From a virus, in IMG/VR virus record IMGVR_UViG_3300047552_002194, positions 1-47,630 of that record: a stretch of DNA of 47,630 nucleotides; one strand, 5' to 3'. Below, piece after piece: positions 1 through 46,922 of the stretch. The notes below the pieces were generated by a model, which saw only the letters and a program-made list of their open reading frames with translations, was not told the DNA's origin and searched no databases. The position numbers and the translations under genes are program-made. How positions within the stretch are numbered: the first letter of the stretch is position 1; the number at the start of each line of letters is the position of its first letter.

Positions 1-582
1 AGTAAAATGTGTCCATGAATTTGTTATACAAGGAGTAAATTCTCCCATAGCAATTTTTTCTTTCATGATATTACTTTGTTTTTCTGATATTAATTTTTTT
101 TCTTCTATAGACATATTGTTTCTTTTTATAACACTAAGATTATGTTTATCTGAATTTTTCATAGCAATAGACATTTTTAATTTAGTTTCTTCCGATCTTT
201 TTTTACCCCTGCAAGAATTTGCTCTTTTAATTTTTTCATCTTCAGTTTGTATACGTTGTGAAGATATAAAACTACTTCTACTTTTTTTGCATTCATTATT
301 GTTACATATATCAGAATAATACATACCTTGTTGATTTACAAAATGTCTTTTATTACCACACCCACATTTAGGCATTATTTTTATATTTTTAATTAGATTA
401 AAAATGAGTTCTTTGTAACTATAACACCAAGTATATTTTGTTGATATCATATTATCCATTAAAATTTTACATTCTGAATAATATCTATCTAATTTATCTT
501 TATTTGTATAGTTAGGATTTATTCTGTTATTCTTTACTACATAATTTAAAATATTTTCTTCAGTATATTTAATAGCACTCAT
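1..582 (-). CDS. Homing endonuclease, partial (3' end outside window)
   Basis: The ATG at 582 opens a frame of 194 codons that runs off the left edge without a stop. The residues show a probable zinc-binding motif (C-x-C near residue 76 and C-x5-C about 25 residues later), then a basic helical stretch (RGKKRSEETKLKMS) like the NUMOD-type DNA-binding repeats of phage homing endonucleases. It ends in a G-E-F-T-P...S-W-T-H stretch that I associate, from memory, with the start of the Vsr-like (EDxHD) nuclease domain; the catalytic part would lie outside the window. The gene starts 35 bases after the terminase fragment stops, at the position where a split-intein terminase is interrupted. A late promoter of its own overlaps that stop. 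The endonuclease class is certain only at family level. Confidence 0.7.
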   Translation of the reverse strand, partial: MSAIKYTEENILNYVVKNNRINPNYTNKDKLDRYYSECKILMDNMISTKYTWCYSYKELIFNLIKNIKIMPKCGCGNKRHFVNQQGMYYSDICNNNECKKSRSSFISSQRIQTEDEKIKRANSCRGKKRSEETKLKMSIAMKNSDKHNLSVIKRNNMSIEEKKLISEKQSNIMKEKIAMGEFTPCITNSWTHFT

Positions 583-613: not shown

Positions 614-621
614 TATTTATA
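614..621 (-). promoter_or_regulatory. T4-type late promoter for the partial HEG
   Basis: Exact TATAAATA on the minus strand, 32 bases before the HEG start codon and overlapping the stop codon of the terminase fragment. In T4 this octamer is the whole late promoter, read by sigma gp55 with gp33 and the clamp. T4 free-standing HEGs commonly carry their own late promoter. Confidence 0.6.
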
Positions 622-1288
622 TTTTTTCATAAAAATTTTCAATTGATATTTGTTCTATTAATCCAGTCTTTTTATTTCGCACTGTAATCATTGATTCACC
701 TGCTATACATTCATCAATAATTAAACAACTAACAGAACGACCTCTAATGGCACTGGAACTTGTTGAAGAAGCAAATGCATAACTTCCATTCTCTAATCTA
801 ATAGATTTAGAATTCCAAGATCTAACACCTTGTTGTAACCATTTTGGAAGTAATTCATATGCTTGTTTTATTTTCCGTAAAATATCAACAGCATTGGCTT
901 CTTTATTGGCTAATATTGCAACAGTTTTGTCTTTATTGAATAATAGATAATGCAGAACATAAATTTCAAAAGATGTACTTTTACCAATCTGACGAGCTGC
1001 TAGAACAATATTGAATCTATTATTTTGGAATGAGGTTATCATATCTCTTTGATAATCTCTCATTTGAATTTTGTGTAGACCGGTATCTATATCCAACACA
1101 TGGTGGTAGCGCTCAGCAAAATAAAATATATCATCTCTGCATTTGAGCCATTCTTTTATATGATTTTCTGTCCAAGGGAGTTTTGTATTTGATTTTTTGA
1201 GTGCTGAATTTCCATCAAAAGCAATGGTATTTCCTTCAGCATCTAATTCAAAATCTTCTGGGTAGGGAGTTGTTAAATTTTCATTCAT
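617..1288 (-). CDS. 17: Large terminase N-terminal part fused to a split-intein N-fragment
   Basis: N-terminal half of the ATPase domain of the DNA-packaging motor (T4 gp17/TerL), which translocates DNA into the prohead. Walker A is ARQIGKST at residues 98-105 and Walker B is CLIIDE at 188-193. Directly after the catalytic DE the terminase sequence stops and C194 begins 30 residues (CIAGESMITVRNKK..., ending FYEKI) that read like the first beta strands of an intein: a Cys1 with a block-A-like pattern. The frame then closes with TAA. The rest of the ATPase and the nuclease domain must be encoded past the left edge, with the C-intein piece. No good Shine-Dalgarno is visible; the gene follows the gp23 terminator. 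A plain truncation is the alternative, but intein residues exactly after Walker B make a split intein the better reading. Confidence 0.85.
   Translation of the reverse strand: MNENLTTPYPEDFELDAEGNTIAFDGNSALKKSNTKLPWTENHIKEWLKCRDDIFYFAERYHHVLDIDTGLHKIQMRDYQRDMITSFQNNRFNIVLAARQIGKSTSFEIYVLHYLLFNKDKTVAILANKEANAVDILRKIKQAYELLPKWLQQGVRSWNSKSIRLENGSYAFASSTSSSAIRGRSVSCLIIDECIAGESMITVRNKKTGLIEQISIENFYEKI
620..709 (-). other. Short N-terminal split-intein fragment
   Basis: Codons 194-223 of the terminase ORF. Cys1 follows the Walker B acidic pair, a classic conserved-site insertion. The fragment is only 30 residues, much shorter than the roughly 90-100-residue N-fragments of DnaE or gp41-1 inteins. 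It matches the atypical early split of the AceL-TerL intein, a metagenomic phage terminase intein whose N-fragment is about 25 residues. The partner C-fragment is not in the window. Confidence 0.75.
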
Positions 1289-1346: not shown

Positions 1347-2756
1347 TTAGTTTACTGTTTTAAAGATGTTATTAGTAAAGTTTGCTAATCCATCCATACC
1401 AGCTGATTGTGAAAAACCATTCATACCAGTATAATCAACATACATAATTCTAAAGAAATCAGAATCACCAATACCGGTACCTGTATCTTGTGGGTGTCTA
1501 ATATATCCATAACGATTGAAAGACAATAGATGTTTTTGGAACATTGGTTCACTTCCATCTGCTTCAATAATTGTATTCAAGTAAGGCGAGAAGATTAAAC
1601 CAGCATCACCAGATGCTTCAGATTCAAAACGATATCCCACAAGAATATAACGATCATTTGCATACATATCACAGTATAAAGGATAGGCGCCAATTTTGCC
1701 TACATAGTAAGGATTATCTTTATCTGGTTCAGCAACAACGTGCCATGGATTGACTTGTAAGAAAGCACAAGTGACACTATCTGCTAATACAAAGAAAGTT
1801 CTATTTCTTTTTGTTGCTCTTACGATATCTTCACCAGCTAACATGATGTTACCAATTAGATCATTTCCTACACCCATTAGATCATTTGTCATACCAATAG
1901 AATCTACTAATCTAATATCATGCCCAATCGGAGTTGCAATGTCTTTAAGATATGTAATAACTTCACGATCAATTTCTTGACGAATATCATTAGCAATAAC
2001 TTTACCGGCGTGTTCTTTATAATTAAGTCCATAAACAGCTTGAAGATCTTGAAGTCTTTCTGTTGAAAATTGTGTCTTGATTTTTCTTGTCTTTGTATTC
2101 ATTACAACAGTTCTAGTCTCATAAGAAACAGTTTTTGTTGCTGTATTTGCAGCTGCACTATCTGTCCAATAATCATTTCCGTTAGCTGAATACTTATATA
2201 AGATCTTTTTAATTGATGTTCTATTTACAGAAGTATAAATGATAGGAACTTCATTAACACCACTTATAGATGTTGAAGTTGTAATTAAACTTGCATTATC
2301 TGTAGGACATTTAATTACCATCATTGTTGCAGTAGCAGCTACATTTGTGTAAGGATCACCTGAACCACCTGAACCTGTAATAGTTGAATAAGGAACATTT
2401 TCAGTATAAAGAATTTTTGCAGTAACAGCAGCTCCAGATACTTGATATGTATTACCTACTACAAATTGATCACCCGACACTGCATTGACAGCAATAATTT
2501 TTGTGTTTTCAAGATATGCTTCTTGAAAAACATCATTCTTATCTCCTGTATAGAAAGCATAGATTGCAGCTACTTTTCCTACTGGGCCATTAATTGGTTG
2601 AATATCAGCAATTTGAGAAACAAGAGTTTCAGGATACAATTTTTCGATCAAAGGAACGATTAATGGCTCCCATCCACCCATATCTGTTGTATTGCTTGAT
2701 TCTTTCAGAAAGTTTTGTCTAAGTGCTTCATTTAAAAGTTTATAATCTTTTTTCAT
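1347..2756 (-). CDS. 23: Major capsid protein, gp23-like
   Basis: 469 residues, somewhat shorter than T4 gp23 (521). The conserved early block of the T4/HK97-type capsid protein is visible: a (P)LIEKLYPETLVSQIADIQ-like stretch, then QPINGPVGKVAAIYAFY at about residues 53-69, matching the QPMNGPTGQ block of gp23. The N-terminus (MKKDYKLLNEALRQNFLKES) has two L-x-E sites (LNE|A and LKE|S) that fit prohead-protease (gp21) cleavage; if used, the propeptide is much shorter than the 65 residues of T4. RBS AGGACGG precedes ATG, and an AATAAATA late promoter overlaps the gp16 stop. It lies between small and large terminase genes, unlike T4, where 16 and 17 are adjacent. Confidence 0.9.
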   Translation of the reverse strand: MKKDYKLLNEALRQNFLKESSNTTDMGGWEPLIVPLIEKLYPETLVSQIADIQPINGPVGKVAAIYAFYTGDKNDVFQEAYLENTKIIAVNAVSGDQFVVGNTYQVSGAAVTAKILYTENVPYSTITGSGGSGDPYTNVAATATMMVIKCPTDNASLITTSTSISGVNEVPIIYTSVNRTSIKKILYKYSANGNDYWTDSAAANTATKTVSYETRTVVMNTKTRKIKTQFSTERLQDLQAVYGLNYKEHAGKVIANDIRQEIDREVITYLKDIATPIGHDIRLVDSIGMTNDLMGVGNDLIGNIMLAGEDIVRATKRNRTFFVLADSVTCAFLQVNPWHVVAEPDKDNPYYVGKIGAYPLYCDMYANDRYILVGYRFESEASGDAGLIFSPYLNTIIEADGSEPMFQKHLLSFNRYGYIRHPQDTGTGIGDSDFFRIMYVDYTGMNGFSQSAGMDGLANFTNNIFKTVN

Positions 2757-2803: not shown

Positions 2804-3319
2804 TTATTTATTGTTTTGATGTTTATCAAAAAGAGTTTGTAGGTCATTAGGCGTCCCACTGAACACAAAATTATTTACAGTCCCCGTATTGATAGCTGAA
2901 TTACAAGTTTCCATTGTATTAAATTTAGAATTCTTCTGTCTCATTTTTTCGATTTCAGAAATCATTTTATAGACTTCCATTATCAATTTCAAATTATTAG
3001 CAATGCTATTCTGTAGATTTGTTAATGCATCTAATTGGCTTGCTTTAAGATCTCCAATGTCAAGTTGCATTGCAGTATCAAGTATTCTTTGACCTTTGGA
3101 AATTAGACTTGTTAAATTCTGTTTAATCATTAGAAAATCAGTTTTTAACATCGATGTTGAAAATACATCTTCATCAATTACTGCTACTTCAGTTGAATGA
3201 ATAATTTCAGGAAGAAGTGGTTCTTCAATTTCTGAAACAAGACTATCAAGATCTTCAATTAATGATTTAGCTGCTCCAAATTTTTTACTAAGTTTTTCTA
3301 ATTTTTCATTCTTTGCCAT
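2804..3319 (-). CDS. 16: Small terminase subunit, gp16-like
   Basis: 171 residues from the second in-frame ATG, chosen because AAGGA sits 6 bases before it, while it touches the first ATG at 3325 directly. The architecture matches T4 gp16 (164 aa): acidic N-terminal part, central coiled-coil segment (about residues 55-125, DFLMIKQNLTSLISKGQ onward to MISEIEK), and a C-terminal block TVNNFVFSGTPNDLQTLFD that parallels the T4 NATVFMGSPTELMDEI block. Function in T4: ring that recognises the concatemer and regulates gp17 packaging ATPase. It sits just upstream of gp23 and near the gp17 fragment. The identification rests on pattern alignment by eye. Confidence 0.75.
   Translation of the reverse strand: MAKNEKLEKLSKKFGAAKSLIEDLDSLVSEIEEPLLPEIIHSTEVAVIDEDVFSTSMLKTDFLMIKQNLTSLISKGQRILDTAMQLDIGDLKASQLDALTNLQNSIANNLKLIMEVYKMISEIEKMRQKNSKFNTMETCNSAINTGTVNNFVFSGTPNDLQTLFDKHQNNK
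2805..2812 (-). promoter_or_regulatory. Late promoter for gp23
   Basis: AATAAATA (7 of 8 to TATAAATA) overlaps the gp16 stop codon, 49 bases before the gp23 start. The extended sequence CAATAAATAAAG recurs before other late genes in the window. Confidence 0.55.
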
Positions 3320-3329
3320 CTTCATTCCT

Positions 3330-11736: not shown

Positions 11737-12717
11737 CTATTCTTTATAATTTGCTATCAAAATTAATAATTCATCTAATGTCATACCATTTTTATCAAAT
11801 TTAGAAATATTTTCTTCCCATTTAATTAATCTTAAATTACAAGGATGTGATATAATTTCAATAGGGATATTATTTTTATAACCATAAGATACTGATACAA
11901 TATGATCTAATTGAATAGCATTATTAGTTCCATTTAATCCTCTATTTTTAATCCATTCATCACCATAAATTTGTTTTGCTACTGTATATGATTGTGATTT
12001 TACAGCCTGTTTATAATATTTCATTTTCTTTCTATCAGGGTGATCTAATGGTAAAAGTTCGCCATTAGATATTCTAGTTTGCATTGCCCGTTTACCATTT
12101 GCTATTCTTTGTTCGGGTGTTAAAGATGTCATCACTTTATCAGCAAATTCTTTTTTGTGCATAACATGAATTACACCATATTTTTCTAAACAAGTATTTT
12201 TCCGTTTTTCAGTAATAATTTGTTCTGCTTCATTTGTTTTCTTTCTTTTTCTTGATATTTGCTTTCCGATTTCTTCTTTACCATATTTTTCTAATTTTGT
12301 AGCATAAACACGTTTCCAAATATCAGGATCATTTTTATGAGCATTTCTTATACCCTCTAATAGATTTTTTTTATAGATTGCTTTTTCTTCAGGGGTTTTA
12401 TTATTATTAGTTTCTTTTTGTTTAACATATGCTAATTCATGGGTACCATTAGCAATTCTGCCTTTTAAAATTCTTTCAGCACGATCTTTAGATTTATTAA
12501 CACATTCTCTTGAACAATAACGGCGATATCCAAAAAATAATCCAACAAATTCGGTATCTTTTCCACATTCACATTTATTTTTATTTTCTCCATCAATATA
12601 CTTTATATAATATTCTTCTACTGTTATATTATGTTTTTTTTCGATATGTCTTGATAAAAATAAATTACTAATTGTTTCATTACATATTGCACAAACAGAA
12701 AAACTTTTTTCTTTCAT
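11737..12717 (-). CDS. HNH-type free-standing homing endonuclease
   Basis: 326 residues. Two zinc-binding motifs at the N-terminus (CAICN...H...H, then CECG...CSREC), a long basic helical linker with LEKYG-type repeats (KLEKYGKEEIGK, CLEKYGVIHVMHKKEF), and a C-terminal HNH nuclease: LDHIVSVSYG (D271-H272), then HPCNLRLIKWEENISK (N294, N303). This is a mobile HEG, not needed for growth. It lies between the small Cys-rich ORF and the ligase-like gene, with its own CATAAATA late-type promoter; I see no broken gene around it. Confidence 0.8.
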   Translation of the reverse strand: MKEKSFSVCAICNETISNLFLSRHIEKKHNITVEEYYIKYIDGENKNKCECGKDTEFVGLFFGYRRYCSRECVNKSKDRAERILKGRIANGTHELAYVKQKETNNNKTPEEKAIYKKNLLEGIRNAHKNDPDIWKRVYATKLEKYGKEEIGKQISRKRKKTNEAEQIITEKRKNTCLEKYGVIHVMHKKEFADKVMTSLTPEQRIANGKRAMQTRISNGELLPLDHPDRKKMKYYKQAVKSQSYTVAKQIYGDEWIKNRGLNGTNNAIQLDHIVSVSYGYKNNIPIEIISHPCNLRLIKWEENISKFDKNGMTLDELLILIANYKE

Positions 12718-25311: not shown

Positions 25312-26136
25312 TTACTTAATCATTTCATTATAATCTGTTTCTGTGATTATATTTATGTTCAGTTGTTTTGCCTTCTGCCATTTTGAAGATGATCCAATTT
25401 GATCCTCCCCACAAATTAAATAATCAAGTTTAGCAGTAACACTAGAGGCAATCTTTCCACCAAAAGATTCAATTTCGGCTTCAACTAGATTTCTCTTTTT
25501 AGAAAGTGTTCCGGTCAGTAAGAATGTTTTTCCTTCAAGAATTCCACCCATTGAAATCTCCTTTTTTACTACAATTGGTTTATATCGTTTATCATTTTTG
25601 ATCTTCTCAAGTATTCTAGCATTATTCAAAAAACTTTCTCTAAGTTTATCTATTGTTGTCTGTCCTATACCTTCTGGATAACTATCTAGAACAGTTCGCT
25701 TGGGTAGATATAACAAAGATATTGTTAATGCTACGTCTGGATATCCCATAATACAATAATGATTTAAGATTTTATTAATGTTTGTTTCACCTGCGCCATC
25801 AAAAGAGAATTTGCTGAAAAGTTCATAATCAACTTTATTGAAAACAGTTGTATTAAGATCTGTATAGAATTTCTGTTGCGACTTATAATTATCAGGTGTC
25901 CATGCAAGGAGTTTATCAAAATCTGTAATATTCCAATTCTTTAATGAAGTTTCAGAAACATTTTCCATCCCACAATTTTCAAGAAAATGCATCACTTGTT
26001 TTGTTGTCGAAACAGAACAATTCTTGTTGGTGCATTTAATATCAACTCCATACCATTCAAGAACAGAATCACACCCCGGACAATTTGTAGGAATACCTAA
26101 TTTTTTCATTTTTTCTAAAGTTTTTTTGTCAATCAT
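25312..26136 (-). CDS. ligA: NAD-dependent DNA ligase, C-terminal part (zinc finger, HhH, BRCT)
   Basis: 274 residues from the ATG at 26136, chosen for GGAG 7 bases upstream; the frame is open further up but without initiation signals. Zinc finger CPGC...C-x4-C (C19, C22, C35, C40), then a helix-hairpin-helix region (KFSFDGAGETNINKIL, YPEGIGQTTIDKLRESF), then a BRCT domain from about residue 197 (GGILEGKTFLLTGTLSKKRNLVEAEIESFGGKIASSV). Together these are the DNA-binding half of bacterial LigA; the adenylation and OB domains are encoded separately at 26878-27906, across an antisense HEG. If both parts are made, they could act as a two-piece enzyme. Confidence 0.85.
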   Translation of the reverse strand: MIDKKTLEKMKKLGIPTNCPGCDSVLEWYGVDIKCTNKNCSVSTTKQVMHFLENCGMENVSETSLKNWNITDFDKLLAWTPDNYKSQQKFYTDLNTTVFNKVDYELFSKFSFDGAGETNINKILNHYCIMGYPDVALTISLLYLPKRTVLDSYPEGIGQTTIDKLRESFLNNARILEKIKNDKRYKPIVVKKEISMGGILEGKTFLLTGTLSKKRNLVEAEIESFGGKIASSVTAKLDYLICGEDQIGSSSKWQKAKQLNINIITETDYNEMIK

Positions 26137-26151
26137 TTTTTTCTCCAATTT

Positions 26152-26159
26152 TATAAATA
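26152..26159 (+). promoter_or_regulatory. Late promoter for the GIY-YIG HEG (plus strand)
   Basis: Exact TATAAATA on the plus strand, 42 bases before the HEG ATG. The only promoter seen for the only plus-strand gene. Confidence 0.65.
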
Positions 26160-26200
26160 ATGTTAGGAATAAAATCACCACTTAAAAGGAATCACATATA

Positions 26201-26881
26201 ATGATTATATACAAAGCAACCAATATTGTCAATAATAAAAGTTATATCGGACAAAGCATTAATTCATTAAAAGTCAGAAAGGCAAGTCATAAATGCGCTG
26301 CACTTAAAGATTCAAATTCATATTTCCATAAAGCAATTAGAAAATATGGTTGGGACTTATTCATATGGGAAATATTATATGAATGTAATTCAATTGAAGA
26401 ATTAGATTCAAAAGAAACGGAATTAATTTTATTACACGAAACACATTATTTAACAGGTAAAGGTTATAATATAACAAAGGGTGGTGATTATCATCCAATG
26501 TCAAATCCAGAAACTAAAATCAAAGCTGATATTAATAGAGCATTAGCAATGAAAAATTTTATGGGTGATAACAATGTCATGAAAAGACCCGAAATTAAAG
26601 AAAAACATAACATAAGAATGAAAGAACTAGCTTTAGAATCAGAATGGATAAATGCTAAAGCAATGGGTACAGAATCTATTTTATCTACATATGAAGTAAC
26701 CTTTCCTGATGGGCATACTGAAATAATAAAAGGTCTATCTAATTTTTGTAAAGAATATTCATTAAGTCAACCCCATATGAGTTCAGTTGCTAATGGTAAT
26801 CGACCCCATCATAAAAAATTTAAATGTAAACTTTTGGATAGAATTAAATCAAAAAGTGATCCTTTCAAACATAAACGTTAA
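26201..26881 (+). CDS. GIY-YIG homing endonuclease inserted antisense in ligA
   Basis: 226 residues, Seg-like. GIY-YIG core: IIYKATNIV...KSYIGQS (Y4, Y15-I-G17), R26/H30, and E72 in the following helix. A NUMOD-like C-terminal DNA-binding part follows (TFPDGHTEIIKGLSNFCKEYSLSQPHMSSVANGN). AAAAGGAA precedes the ATG. Its stop codon overlaps that of the ligase OB-fold fragment on the other strand (TTAA), so it fits exactly between the two ligase pieces. Mobile, dispensable element; the only plus-strand gene in the window. Confidence 0.88.
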   Translation: MIIYKATNIVNNKSYIGQSINSLKVRKASHKCAALKDSNSYFHKAIRKYGWDLFIWEILYECNSIEELDSKETELILLHETHYLTGKGYNITKGGDYHPMSNPETKIKADINRALAMKNFMGDNNVMKRPEIKEKHNIRMKELALESEWINAKAMGTESILSTYEVTFPDGHTEIIKGLSNFCKEYSLSQPHMSSVANGNRPHHKKFKCKLLDRIKSKSDPFKHKR

Positions 26882-27093
26882 TTTTCGATTTTTATTATTT
26901 TAGGAATTATTTCACCTGAGCGTATAATCCAAACACGAGTACCCTTTTGTATTTTGTTATCTAAAATATATAAAGCATTGTATCCTGTACAACGTTTTAC
27001 TGTTGTTCCATCAATTTCAATCGGTTCTAACAAAACAACAGGTTTAACTGCTCCATTTTTACTTGTGTTCCATTCAATATCAATAACAGTCGT
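26878..27093 (-). pseudogene. ligA: OB-fold segment of LigA cut off by an in-frame stop
   Basis: Directly after the TAA that ends the ligase adenylation domain, the same frame continues for 71 codons with TTVIDIEWNTSKNG, KPVVLLEPIEIDGTTVKRCT, YNALYILDNKIQKGTRVWII and RSGEIIPKIIKI. This is the LigA OB domain (usual form T-x-L-x-I-x-W...V-x-R-A-G-x-V-I-P-K). It has no start codon of its own. Either the TAA at 27094-27096 is a recent nonsense change, or it is read through, or this domain is lost. The segment ends at the HEG. Confidence 0.8.
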
Positions 27094-27906
27094 TTATATT
27101 GCTTGTGAATTGACTTTAAAAGCAACTTTATGCTTTGGATGATACACATTTTCATTTTCACAATCGAATGATGAAATCACAAGTCCATCTATATCATATA
27201 CAGCAAATGCTTTTCTTTCAAGCAAAAATTCTTTTAGATTTTCTTCTGTATAATCAGTGACTTCATGTAAACAATATAATGGTGTCTGAAATCCTAATTG
27301 TTCCAATTCAAGAAATTGATCAAACATACCTTTATCAGAATTGACAATTTGATATACAATTGCTTTTACGTGTTTAATGGTTTCTGGGTTAACTTCATCA
27401 CGATTAATTACACCAACTGTACCATTTCTTCTATTCTTGAATCCGAGTTCTTTATGTGAATTATGTGTTAAAGTTAATTCGCCTCTTATTTCAAGATGAT
27501 CTTTTGAAGTGATTTTAGGTAGAATATGTTTAAGTTTCTTAGTGATATCTTTACCAGTTTTTCCATCACCTCTTGTTGCGCCTTTAATGAATTTTCCTTT
27601 ATTATAAGTCGCAACAAAGGAACATCCATCAATTTTTTCAGAAACAATTAACTGGTTAATGTTATTCACTAATAGGAATTTGTTAAGTTCATGTTCGCCG
27701 TATCTGACTTTTTCGAGTGAGCCGACTATATAATCATGTTTAACATCTCCACCGTCTTCAAACAGAGATTCTTTGAATTTTCTGCATTCTTCATAATCCA
27801 TTTCATTTTCTTCATACTTAGTCAAAAGAATATCATATTCTTCATCTGACATTATTGGTGTTCCTTTACGATATGCTTCATTTGCTTCTATAATTTGTTC
27901 TTTCAT
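27094..27906 (-). CDS. ligA: NAD-dependent DNA ligase, N-terminal adenylation part
   Basis: 270 residues. Domain Ia-like start (EAYRKGTPIMSDEEYDILL) that binds NMN of NAD+, then the adenylation domain: motif I SEKIDGCSF with K91-x-D-G, TRGDGKTGKDIT, motif III LEIRGELTL (E143), motif IV YDIDGLVIS and VAFK with K264. It stops after VNSQAI, exactly at the border to the OB fold, which continues in frame after the stop. RBS AAAAGGAAT. It follows the SR-rich mini-protein ORF and is likely transcribed from the early promoter at 28.1 kb. The isolated part could self-adenylate but not seal nicks efficiently. Confidence 0.88.
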   Translation of the reverse strand: MKEQIIEANEAYRKGTPIMSDEEYDILLTKYEENEMDYEECRKFKESLFEDGGDVKHDYIVGSLEKVRYGEHELNKFLLVNNINQLIVSEKIDGCSFVATYNKGKFIKGATRGDGKTGKDITKKLKHILPKITSKDHLEIRGELTLTHNSHKELGFKNRRNGTVGVINRDEVNPETIKHVKAIVYQIVNSDKGMFDQFLELEQLGFQTPLYCLHEVTDYTEENLKEFLLERKAFAVYDIDGLVISSFDCENENVYHPKHKVAFKVNSQAI

Positions 27907-44923: not shown

Positions 44924-46024
44924 TTATTTTAAACTAAGACCATTTGTTTTGTAGCGTTCTGTTAGAGGTGAGGAGATATCTTTGCCTTTGAAAAGATGAT
45001 CAAATAATTCAATATATCTTTCGATTATCATTGAACCATTATTTTCATATGTGAAATTATCGTGAACGAATTGCCATGCATTTTTTCTAAGTCTATCACG
45101 TTCTGATTTGTCATTAATTAATTGATCAAATGCTTCATTCCAACCCCTTTTATCATGAGTAACAATTAATCCCGTTTCATTATGATCAATACTGTTATCA
45201 TATGGATATTGTGATCTAGCAATAGTAGGAACAGAACAACCAGAATATTCAAGAAATTTTAGATTAGATTTACATTTGTTAAACATATTGTTTTCAACTA
45301 CTGCAAACCCAATATCAAGATTAAGATTAAAAAGAAATTCTAACCAATTATCAGCATCAACCCATCCATGTACTTCATGAACAAAACCTTTTACATAATT
45401 AGGAGCAAAACCAGAGAAGATGATTTCAACATCTTTTTTGTTTATTGTTCTATCACGTAAGTATTTAATTAATTCAGCTGGAAATTCAAATGCATGAGTA
45501 TATGATCCTGCCCAACCAATTCTTAGTTTTTCATTGTTAATCATTTCTTTATAAGCATATGTTGAATGTATCATATTAGGTACAACTACAACATTGGGAT
45601 TCCATTTAGAAATATATTCACCTAATGGAATTGTTGAAGTTGTTACAGCATCAACAAGTTTTACAATTTCTGTCATTCTTCTTGTGATTTCTTTTGGGTA
45701 ATAACGATGTGCAAGATTTCCTGAAGGGATCTCCCAAATATTATCATCCATATCAAGAACAATTTTCTTCCCTGCTTGTTGCATTGCGGGGATCCATTCT
45801 AAGAAGAATTCGTGATTAATTCTTTGAACAAAGATAACATCTTGGGTTGCTAATCTGGGATCATTAGGTGGAAATCCCATATTATAGACTAGGTTATTGA
45901 AATGATTTTGTAGATATTGTGCGGGACTTTTGCATCTGGCGAAACCGCACCCCGTACTATCTGAAGAAGTCATATAAATTTTAAGATCTTTGTATTCGTT
46001 ATTATACTGAGTAGTATTCTTCAT
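44924..46024 (-). CDS. Glycosyltransferase (GT-B fold, family 4-like)
   Basis: 366 residues. The N-terminal domain starts KDLKIYMTSSDSTGCGFARCKSP; the C-terminal sugar-nucleotide domain shows LRIGWAGSYTHAFEF, FLEYSGCSVPTIARS and NETGLIVTHDKRGWNEAFDQLI, the E-x7-E/N-G-x-x-V block of group-1 glycosyltransferases, and ends with DNFTYENN. Could glycosylate phage DNA, virion proteins or host surface. Its first 23 bases overlap the end of the HEG upstream; a diverged copy of its first 21 codons lies on the other side of that HEG. Confidence 0.85.
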   Translation of the reverse strand: MKNTTQYNNEYKDLKIYMTSSDSTGCGFARCKSPAQYLQNHFNNLVYNMGFPPNDPRLATQDVIFVQRINHEFFLEWIPAMQQAGKKIVLDMDDNIWEIPSGNLAHRYYPKEITRRMTEIVKLVDAVTTSTIPLGEYISKWNPNVVVVPNMIHSTYAYKEMINNEKLRIGWAGSYTHAFEFPAELIKYLRDRTINKKDVEIIFSGFAPNYVKGFVHEVHGWVDADNWLEFLFNLNLDIGFAVVENNMFNKCKSNLKFLEYSGCSVPTIARSQYPYDNSIDHNETGLIVTHDKRGWNEAFDQLINDKSERDRLRKNAWQFVHDNFTYENNGSMIIERYIELFDHLFKGKDISSPLTERYKTNGLSLK

Positions 46025-46922
46025 TAATTAATGCTCCATTCTTTTTCATTATCATATATTTAAAATTAAAACCCTCAATTATACATTGTTCTTGTTTTAA
46101 TTTTGTTCTTTCTTTATCAGCACGTATTGTCCATGTTGATTTAACTTCAATAATTAAATTATCTTTAGGTATGAAAAAATCGGGGAAATATCTTCTTACT
46201 TTATCTTCATAAACATACAAAATTTTAGGTATTAATTGTTTATCGAATATTATTTCATCTTCAGTATATTTAGTTAATAATAAATCTAATGCTACATTTT
46301 CGTATCCCTGTAATTTAATTATTTTGCCAGAAGGTAAAACATAATCTTTAAATTTATAACGTTTTCTTAACATTTTCTCAAAATGAATCGGATCTTGTGG
46401 AAGATGTTCAAATCCGCATCTTGCAAGATTGTTTTTCATTGTAATTTCTTCATAAATTATTTTATCATAATCTTCTCCATATTTTTCAATTTTGCTAACC
46501 TTTTGTTTTTCTTTAACCCAATCTAATTGATTTGTGGATTTAACACCATATTTTTTCATCATTGCATTTTGTAATATATCAACACGTTGATATATGTTTT
46601 CAACACCATATCTTTCTAACATTGTCTGTTTTTGTAATTCCAAATTTACATAATTTTCATCACCATATTTTTCTAATCTAGTCTGTTTAGATTTAATATT
46701 CGCATTTAAATCTTTTATTTCTTTATCAGTGTTTCTTGTTTCTAATTTTTTCTTTTTAACTGTTTCTAGGTGAGAAATATTACTAACTCCAAATTTTTCC
46801 ATTAAATTTTTCTTTTGTGTAATTGCAGATTGCTTTACTCTGCATTCAAAAGAACACGTTTTTTGATTTTTATTATAACGTTTGATTTTAAATTCTTTAC
46901 CACAGATTGTACAAGTCAACAT
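46002..46922 (-). CDS. Vsr-like homing endonuclease
   Basis: 306 residues. Zinc finger-like start CTICGKEF...CSFEC, then many EKFGV/EKYG repeats (MEKFGVSNISHLE, LEKYGDENYVN, LERYGVENIYQ, MKKYGVKSTNQ), a DNA-binding repeat type of phage HEGs. The nuclease domain has YFPDFFIPKDNLIIEVKS: D248, E259 and K261 as a PD-(D/E)xK/Vsr-type core. RBS GGGAGA. It carries its own late promoter. The C-terminal codons extend into the start of the intact glycosyltransferase, next to a duplicated piece of that gene. Confidence 0.85.
   Translation of the reverse strand: MLTCTICGKEFKIKRYNKNQKTCSFECRVKQSAITQKKNLMEKFGVSNISHLETVKKKKLETRNTDKEIKDLNANIKSKQTRLEKYGDENYVNLELQKQTMLERYGVENIYQRVDILQNAMMKKYGVKSTNQLDWVKEKQKVSKIEKYGEDYDKIIYEEITMKNNLARCGFEHLPQDPIHFEKMLRKRYKFKDYVLPSGKIIKLQGYENVALDLLLTKYTEDEIIFDKQLIPKILYVYEDKVRRYFPDFFIPKDNLIIEVKSTWTIRADKERTKLKQEQCIIEGFNFKYMIMKKNGALINEEYYSV

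What the first reader, a model, noticed from the sequence alone, without database searches (positions are those of the whole stretch)
617..1288. Large terminase gene split by a very short intein N-fragment at Walker B
The ORF has a clean Walker A (ARQIGKST) and Walker B (CLIIDE). It then switches at C194 to 30 intein-like residues and stops. This resembles the atypical TerL split inteins with about 25-residue N-fragments (AceL-TerL), which are rare. If the C-part lies past the left edge, the packaging motor must be trans-spliced for head filling.
Basis: partly seen in the sequence, partly recalled or inferred. Interest (0 to 1): 0.8.

Follow-up and report, generated by a model that had tools for sequence, protein, structure and literature searches.

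The report
Split terminase gene with N-intein piece
A T4-like virus carries the front half of its DNA-packaging motor gene ending in the first 30 residues of a naturally split, self-splicing intein, with a homing-endonuclease gene behind it; the arrangement is real, but it is one more member of a family already known from AceL-TerL and present in many T4-like phages.

Summary
ORF 617-1288(-) is the N half of a T4-type large terminase (TerL). It runs through Walker A and Walker B (CLIIDE193), then has exactly 30 intein N-fragment (IntN) residues (C194-I223) and a stop. A profile built from other inteins at this site, with the window left out, finds this stretch alone in the window's six frames (E=5e-12). 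The only PDB match is CatN of 6DSL, the consensus TerL split intein.

The same DE|C split exists in many phages. I found 26 distinct loci with IntN, gap and intein C-fragment (IntC) on one strand, the IntC nearly always ending SHN|CAF and followed by the TerL C half. Thanatos-2, HY03, JK32 and Campylobacter Fletchervirus have it too. Relatives of the homing endonuclease gene (HEG, 1-582 -) that align over nearly their whole length lie in this same TerL split.

The record ends inside that HEG. The C half is absent from the record and I did not find it elsewhere. By alignment it should begin about 0.4 kb past the left edge. Splicing itself is inferred.

New member of a known kind.

The parts
710..1288 (-). 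TerL N-extein, residues 1-193, with Walker A ARQIGKST and Walker B CLIIDE
   Evidence: Pfam Terminase_6N E=4e-11; aligned through DE193 with intact TerLs L154/L155 at 57% identity
617..709 (-). Intein N-fragment, residues 194-223 (30 aa) plus stop codon
   Evidence: Profile without the window E=4.9e-12; 6DSL CatN match; relatives at the same site
1..582 (-). Free-standing homing endonuclease gene, first 194 aa; own ATG and GGAG at 588-591; C-terminal TnsA-like nuclease domain would lie past the left edge
   Evidence: 31% identity over 173 aa to the HEG fused to IntN in Thanatos-2; hits in the gap of the same split in L140, L113, L083, L089, L101, L099, L131, L081, L076; alignment A2; Pfam of full-length relatives
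1347..2756 (-). Major capsid protein, upstream neighbour (context)
   Evidence: PHROG 138 major head protein E=1e-45
2804..3325 (-). Probable small terminase subunit (context)
   Evidence: PHROG 445 E=2e-6

Best explanation
This is the N half of a large terminase broken at Walker B by a naturally split intein with a short N-fragment (30 aa), of the AceL-TerL / GOS-TerL / Cat type, with a free-standing homing endonuclease gene between the halves. Shown: N-extein, IntN, exact junction and the start of the HEG. Inferred: just past the left edge, about 0.4 kb on, the HEG ends and an ORF starts with about 105-120 aa of IntC ending in (S)HN, then Cys+1-AF and the rest of the ATPase and nuclease domains. 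The fragments associate, Cys194 and Cys+1 carry out trans-splicing, and an intact TerL with DE|C(A)F is made. The HEG probably cuts intein-less terL alleles near this codon and spreads the whole cassette.
For: Exact junction after DE. IntN profile E=5e-12 with the window excluded. Only PDB match is 6DSL CatN, and Thanatos-2 IntC matches 6DSL CatC at E=4e-8. 26 distinct split loci at this site, all with IntC downstream on the same strand, 419-2108 nt from Cys1 to Cys+1. HEG relatives aligned over nearly their whole length are found in this split. Contiguous inteins at the same site in CP21, Vibrio phage vB_VmeM-32 and SRB7757 show the unsplit form; CP21 versus IBB_35 shows a HEG right after the ~30-aa IntN. 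Second contig with 100% identity.
Against: The C half is not in the record and was not found in the viral or genome contigs. No splicing data. In Fletchervirus the two halves lie about 26 kb apart, so adjacency is not universal.
Confidence: 0.93

Rival explanations
1. Split as stated, but the C half lies far away in the genome rather than just past the left edge, as in Campylobacter Fletchervirus.
For: Fletchervirus PC5 and NCTC12673 have N and C parts about 26 kb apart on opposite strands.
Against: A HEG of the family found in this split sits right behind the IntN here; in loci holding full-length HEGs of this family the IntC match starts about 12-100 nt after the HEG. The HEG query finds no match at the Fletchervirus break.
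Confidence: 0.04
2. A dead or decaying terL: the gene was truncated and the tail is a relic, with packaging done by another TerL or a defective genome.
For: The C half is not seen in the record.
Against: The junction is exact, the IntN keeps Cys1 and the family pattern, there are no lesions, and dozens of phages keep the same break.
Confidence: 0.02
3. The two terminase halves work as separate polypeptides that assemble without splicing, as reported for a HEG-split phage ribonucleotide reductase.
For: Genes in pieces that keep function without splicing are known (Friedrich et al. 2007, as cited in PMC3322345 and PMC10448857).
Against: A conserved intein N-fragment would serve no purpose, and relatives carry IntC ending HN|C. 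Homologues AceL-TerL, GOS-TerL and Cat splice in trans (reviewed in PMC11766414).
Confidence: 0.01

Closest known systems
AceL-TerL, GOS-TerL and the engineered consensus Cat intein (PDB 6DSL)
   Same: TerL host protein, short IntN (25, 37 and 30 aa), Cys1 in AceL (GOS has Ser1), Glu before intein residue 1 in the 6DSL chain, aligned over 30 residues
   Different: About half the residues differ from CatN; the IntC of this virus is unseen; splicing untested
Split gp17 in T4-like phages (Thanatos-2, HY03, JK32, phiR1-RT)
   Same: Same DE|C site, IntN then HEG then IntC ending ESHN|CAF; HEG homologous
   Different: There the HEG is fused to IntN (Thanatos-2, JK32) or overlaps its end (HY03); here it is free-standing with its own start 34 nt after the stop
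Campylobacter phages: Fletchervirus (PC5, NCTC12673) and Firehammervirus (CP21, IBB_35)
   Same: Same DE|C site; Fletchervirus 54% identical over the 46-aa junction region
   Different: Fletchervirus halves about 26 kb apart; CP21 intein contiguous; IBB_35 split by a MobE-like HEG
Fractured genes with split inteins and HEGs (Dassa et al. 2009; from memory and from its citation in PMC10448857, paper not held)
   Same: Essential gene broken at an intein with a HEG between the parts
   Different: Different inteins, with the break at the usual internal HEG site rather than near the N end (from memory)

Membership tests
AceL-TerL/Cat-type atypically split inteins | Short N-fragment of about 25-40 aa ending in a stop | tested here: met
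   30 aa then TAA
AceL-TerL/Cat-type atypically split inteins | IntN sequence homology to the family | tested here: met
   Profile E=4.9e-12 without the window; 6DSL CatN the only PDB match, E=0.13 for a 39-aa query
AceL-TerL/Cat-type atypically split inteins | Host protein TerL, nucleophile at position 1, junction at a conserved motif | tested here: met
   Cys194 directly after Walker B DE
AceL-TerL/Cat-type atypically split inteins | IntC of about 104 aa ending in Asn, then Cys/Ser/Thr+1 and the TerL C half | not testable with these tools
   Off the left edge; present in 26 related loci
AceL-TerL/Cat-type atypically split inteins | Trans-splicing activity | not testable with these tools
   Needs an experiment
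Split gene with intervening homing endonuclease | HEG directly behind the N part | tested here: met
   ORF 1-582(-), homologous to HEGs in the same gap elsewhere
Split gene with intervening homing endonuclease | C part directly behind the HEG | not testable with these tools
   Record ends inside the HEG
T4-type large terminase | Terminase_6N ATPase domain and head/packaging neighbours | tested here: met
   TerL, MCP and probable TerS adjacent
T4-type large terminase | C-terminal nuclease domain | not testable with these tools
   Off the record

The most novel reading that the evidence does not exclude
Because the break lies at the catalytic Walker B of an essential late motor, trans-splicing could act as a timing gate: packaging ATPase would exist only after both halves are made and spliced, so the element may have been co-opted to control head filling.
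Probability: 0.07. Interest if true: 0.75.

Novelty: new member of a known kind. Interest (0 to 1): 0.38.

Why it matters
It adds a natural short-IntN split intein, of a type useful for peptide labelling, from a T4-like virus distant from isolated phages. Read with its relatives, it shows that terL is a hot spot where inteins sit at catalytic motifs (Walker A, just before Walker B, at Walker B, and further sites). It also shows that a HEG family is tied to one of those sites. The CP21/IBB_35 pair suggests how a contiguous intein becomes split: a HEG drops in right after the first 30 residues.

Tried and rejected
1) Finding the C half of this virus: exact search with 36 bases of the left edge in viral contigs found nothing; the HEG query found only the shorter twin contig; the TerL C half of the close relative L041 gave intact, Walker A-interrupted or more distant TerLs; the HNCxFIxxNxW pattern gave 15 stretches, none close; genome contigs gave one weak hit. 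2) Junction one site upstream (RGRSIS|CLIIDE, used in relative L085) rejected: here LIIDE is already present before the intein residues. 3) Chance match rejected by profile statistics. 4) Assembly artefact made unlikely by the twin contig L002. 5) Rfam found no intron in the window at the gathering threshold. 6) No structure prediction was made: the IntC partner is not available.

Full report
Observation. The ORF at 617-1288 on the minus strand encodes 223 aa. Residues 95-195 match Pfam Terminase_6N at E=4e-11, and PHROG 5989 (terminase large subunit) covers 12-223 at E=5e-69. Walker A is ARQIGKST and Walker B CLIIDE ends at residue 193. After it come 30 residues, CIAGESMITVRNKKTGLIEQISIENFYEKI, and a stop. 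Intein-less relatives continue directly after DE with AAFIENWDEF, RAFIANNNWDAF or CAFVDNWDQF, so the switch is at the exact junction. The neighbours are a probable TerS and the major capsid protein, a T4-type packaging and head context.

Is it more than chance? I collected 33 distinct IntN sequences at the DE| site from phage and IMG/VR loci, without the window and its twin contig, and built a 34-column profile. In all six frames of the window (1142 segments) it finds only this ORF at E=4.9e-12; the next best is 0.046. A PDB search with the 39-residue junction region returns one chain, 6DSL_A, the consensus engineered intein CatN, aligned over 30 residues with Glu just before intein residue 1; E=0.13 on its own, but it is the only hit. 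The Thanatos-2 IntC, joined behind the window IntN in one query, matches 6DSL_B CatC at E=4e-8.

Relatives. Campylobacter Fletchervirus phages have the same break, IDE|CVAGDTKITVRNKKTGVIEDITMEELYNRIG*, 54% identical over 46 residues. Shewanella phage Thanatos-2 has the N half plus IntN fused to a HEG, then an overlapping ORF that begins with IntC, ends it at ESHN|CAFIPNF and goes on into the TerL C half. HY03, JK32 and others share this. In IMG/VR, 122 stretches matched the IntC patterns and 92 encode a relative of the IntC-plus-CAF alignment. Scoring the loci gave 26 distinct split cases at DE|C, every one with the IntC downstream on the same strand, 419 to 2108 nt from Cys1 to Cys+1, and three contiguous inteins. 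IntC ends in SHN|C in nearly all.

The homing endonuclease. ORF 1-582(-) starts 34 nt after the TerL-N stop with its own ATG and a GGAG upstream (sequence). It is 31% identical over 173 aa to the HEG part of Thanatos-2. It also matches the gap ORF in L140, L113, L083, L089, L101, L099, L131, L081 and L076. A scan with the HEG family alignment gave 59 loci. The loci that align over nearly the whole HEG lie behind an IntN at DE|C in terL, with an IntC following where the locus is long enough. Two that align only from residue 64 on, L279 and L291, had no intein hit, and loci that share only the C-terminal nuclease domain are elsewhere. Pfam calls the C-terminal domain of full-length relatives TnsA-like (E=1e-6). 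The window's HEG stops at the record edge at a point equal to about residue 213 of 337 in L089, and in L243-L248 the IntC match starts about 12 nt after the HEG. So the C half should begin roughly 0.4 kb past the left edge. That is a concrete prediction, not an observation.

How it most likely works. AceL-TerL, GOS-TerL and Cat are known to splice in trans, with a short IntN binding a large IntC (reviewed in PMC11766414). The present fragment has Cys1 and the family pattern; the relatives supply IntC with HN|C. The inferred product is an intact TerL. The HEG is inferred to promote spread into terL alleles without the element. Origin: CP21 carries a contiguous intein at this site, while the closely related IBB_35 carries a MobE-like HEG right after the ~30-aa N-fragment (the IBB_35 authors reported an intein and a HEG in terL, PMC3322345). 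This suggests that HEG insertion split a contiguous intein. It is a comparison of two phages, not a traced event.

What is not settled. The C half of this virus was not found in any of the searches. The record is a 47,630-base virus record that ends inside the HEG, so it is a fragment of the genome (inference). Dispersed halves occur in Fletchervirus (about 26 kb apart, opposite strands), so a distant C half is possible though unlikely here. Splicing and homing are untested.

Verdict. New member of a known kind, moderate interest.

Noticed in passing
L057/L062 (NC_015464.1 46033 and 72897) and L058/L061 (KX229736.1): Campylobacter Fletchervirus terL is split at Walker B with the halves about 26 kb apart on opposite strands; neither half is annotated in the NCTC12673 record. 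A dispersed, presumably trans-spliced terminase in well-studied phages.
   Followed up: partly
L041:4698-4708, also L042 and L043: TerL reading frame broken at Walker A: ASRQC GGC TGA AT GGA AAA TCA; a 5-nt hop from GGC to GGA would restore SRQCGKST. Seen in three contigs (L043 about 2% different from the other two). Possible translational bypass, frameshift, or scar near the Walker A intein site (RQ|C in L153).
   Followed up: partly
window 25312-27906: NAD-dependent DNA ligase is in pieces: adenylation part with an in-frame TAA at about 27094-27096 (QAI*TTV), then a GIY-YIG HEG on the opposite strand (26201-26881 +), then a zinc finger-BRCT part. No Rfam intron hit.
   Followed up: partly
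L047, L051-L054, L066, L083, L091, L153: TerL genes with split or contiguous inteins at several other motifs (Walker A GK| or RQ|, before Walker B, SQE|C, near EFQC), some genes with two or three at once.
   Followed up: partly
L297:2-900: Same HEG nuclease domain followed by an intein C end SN|CHGVKAD in what looks like a UvsW-type helicase, so perhaps again at a DE|C(H) Walker B motif. Gene identity inferred by eye.
   Followed up: no
window 11737-12717 (-) and 46002-46922 (-): Two further HEG-like genes (both match PHROG 3339 homing endonuclease; the second also Pfam DUF7487).
   Followed up: no
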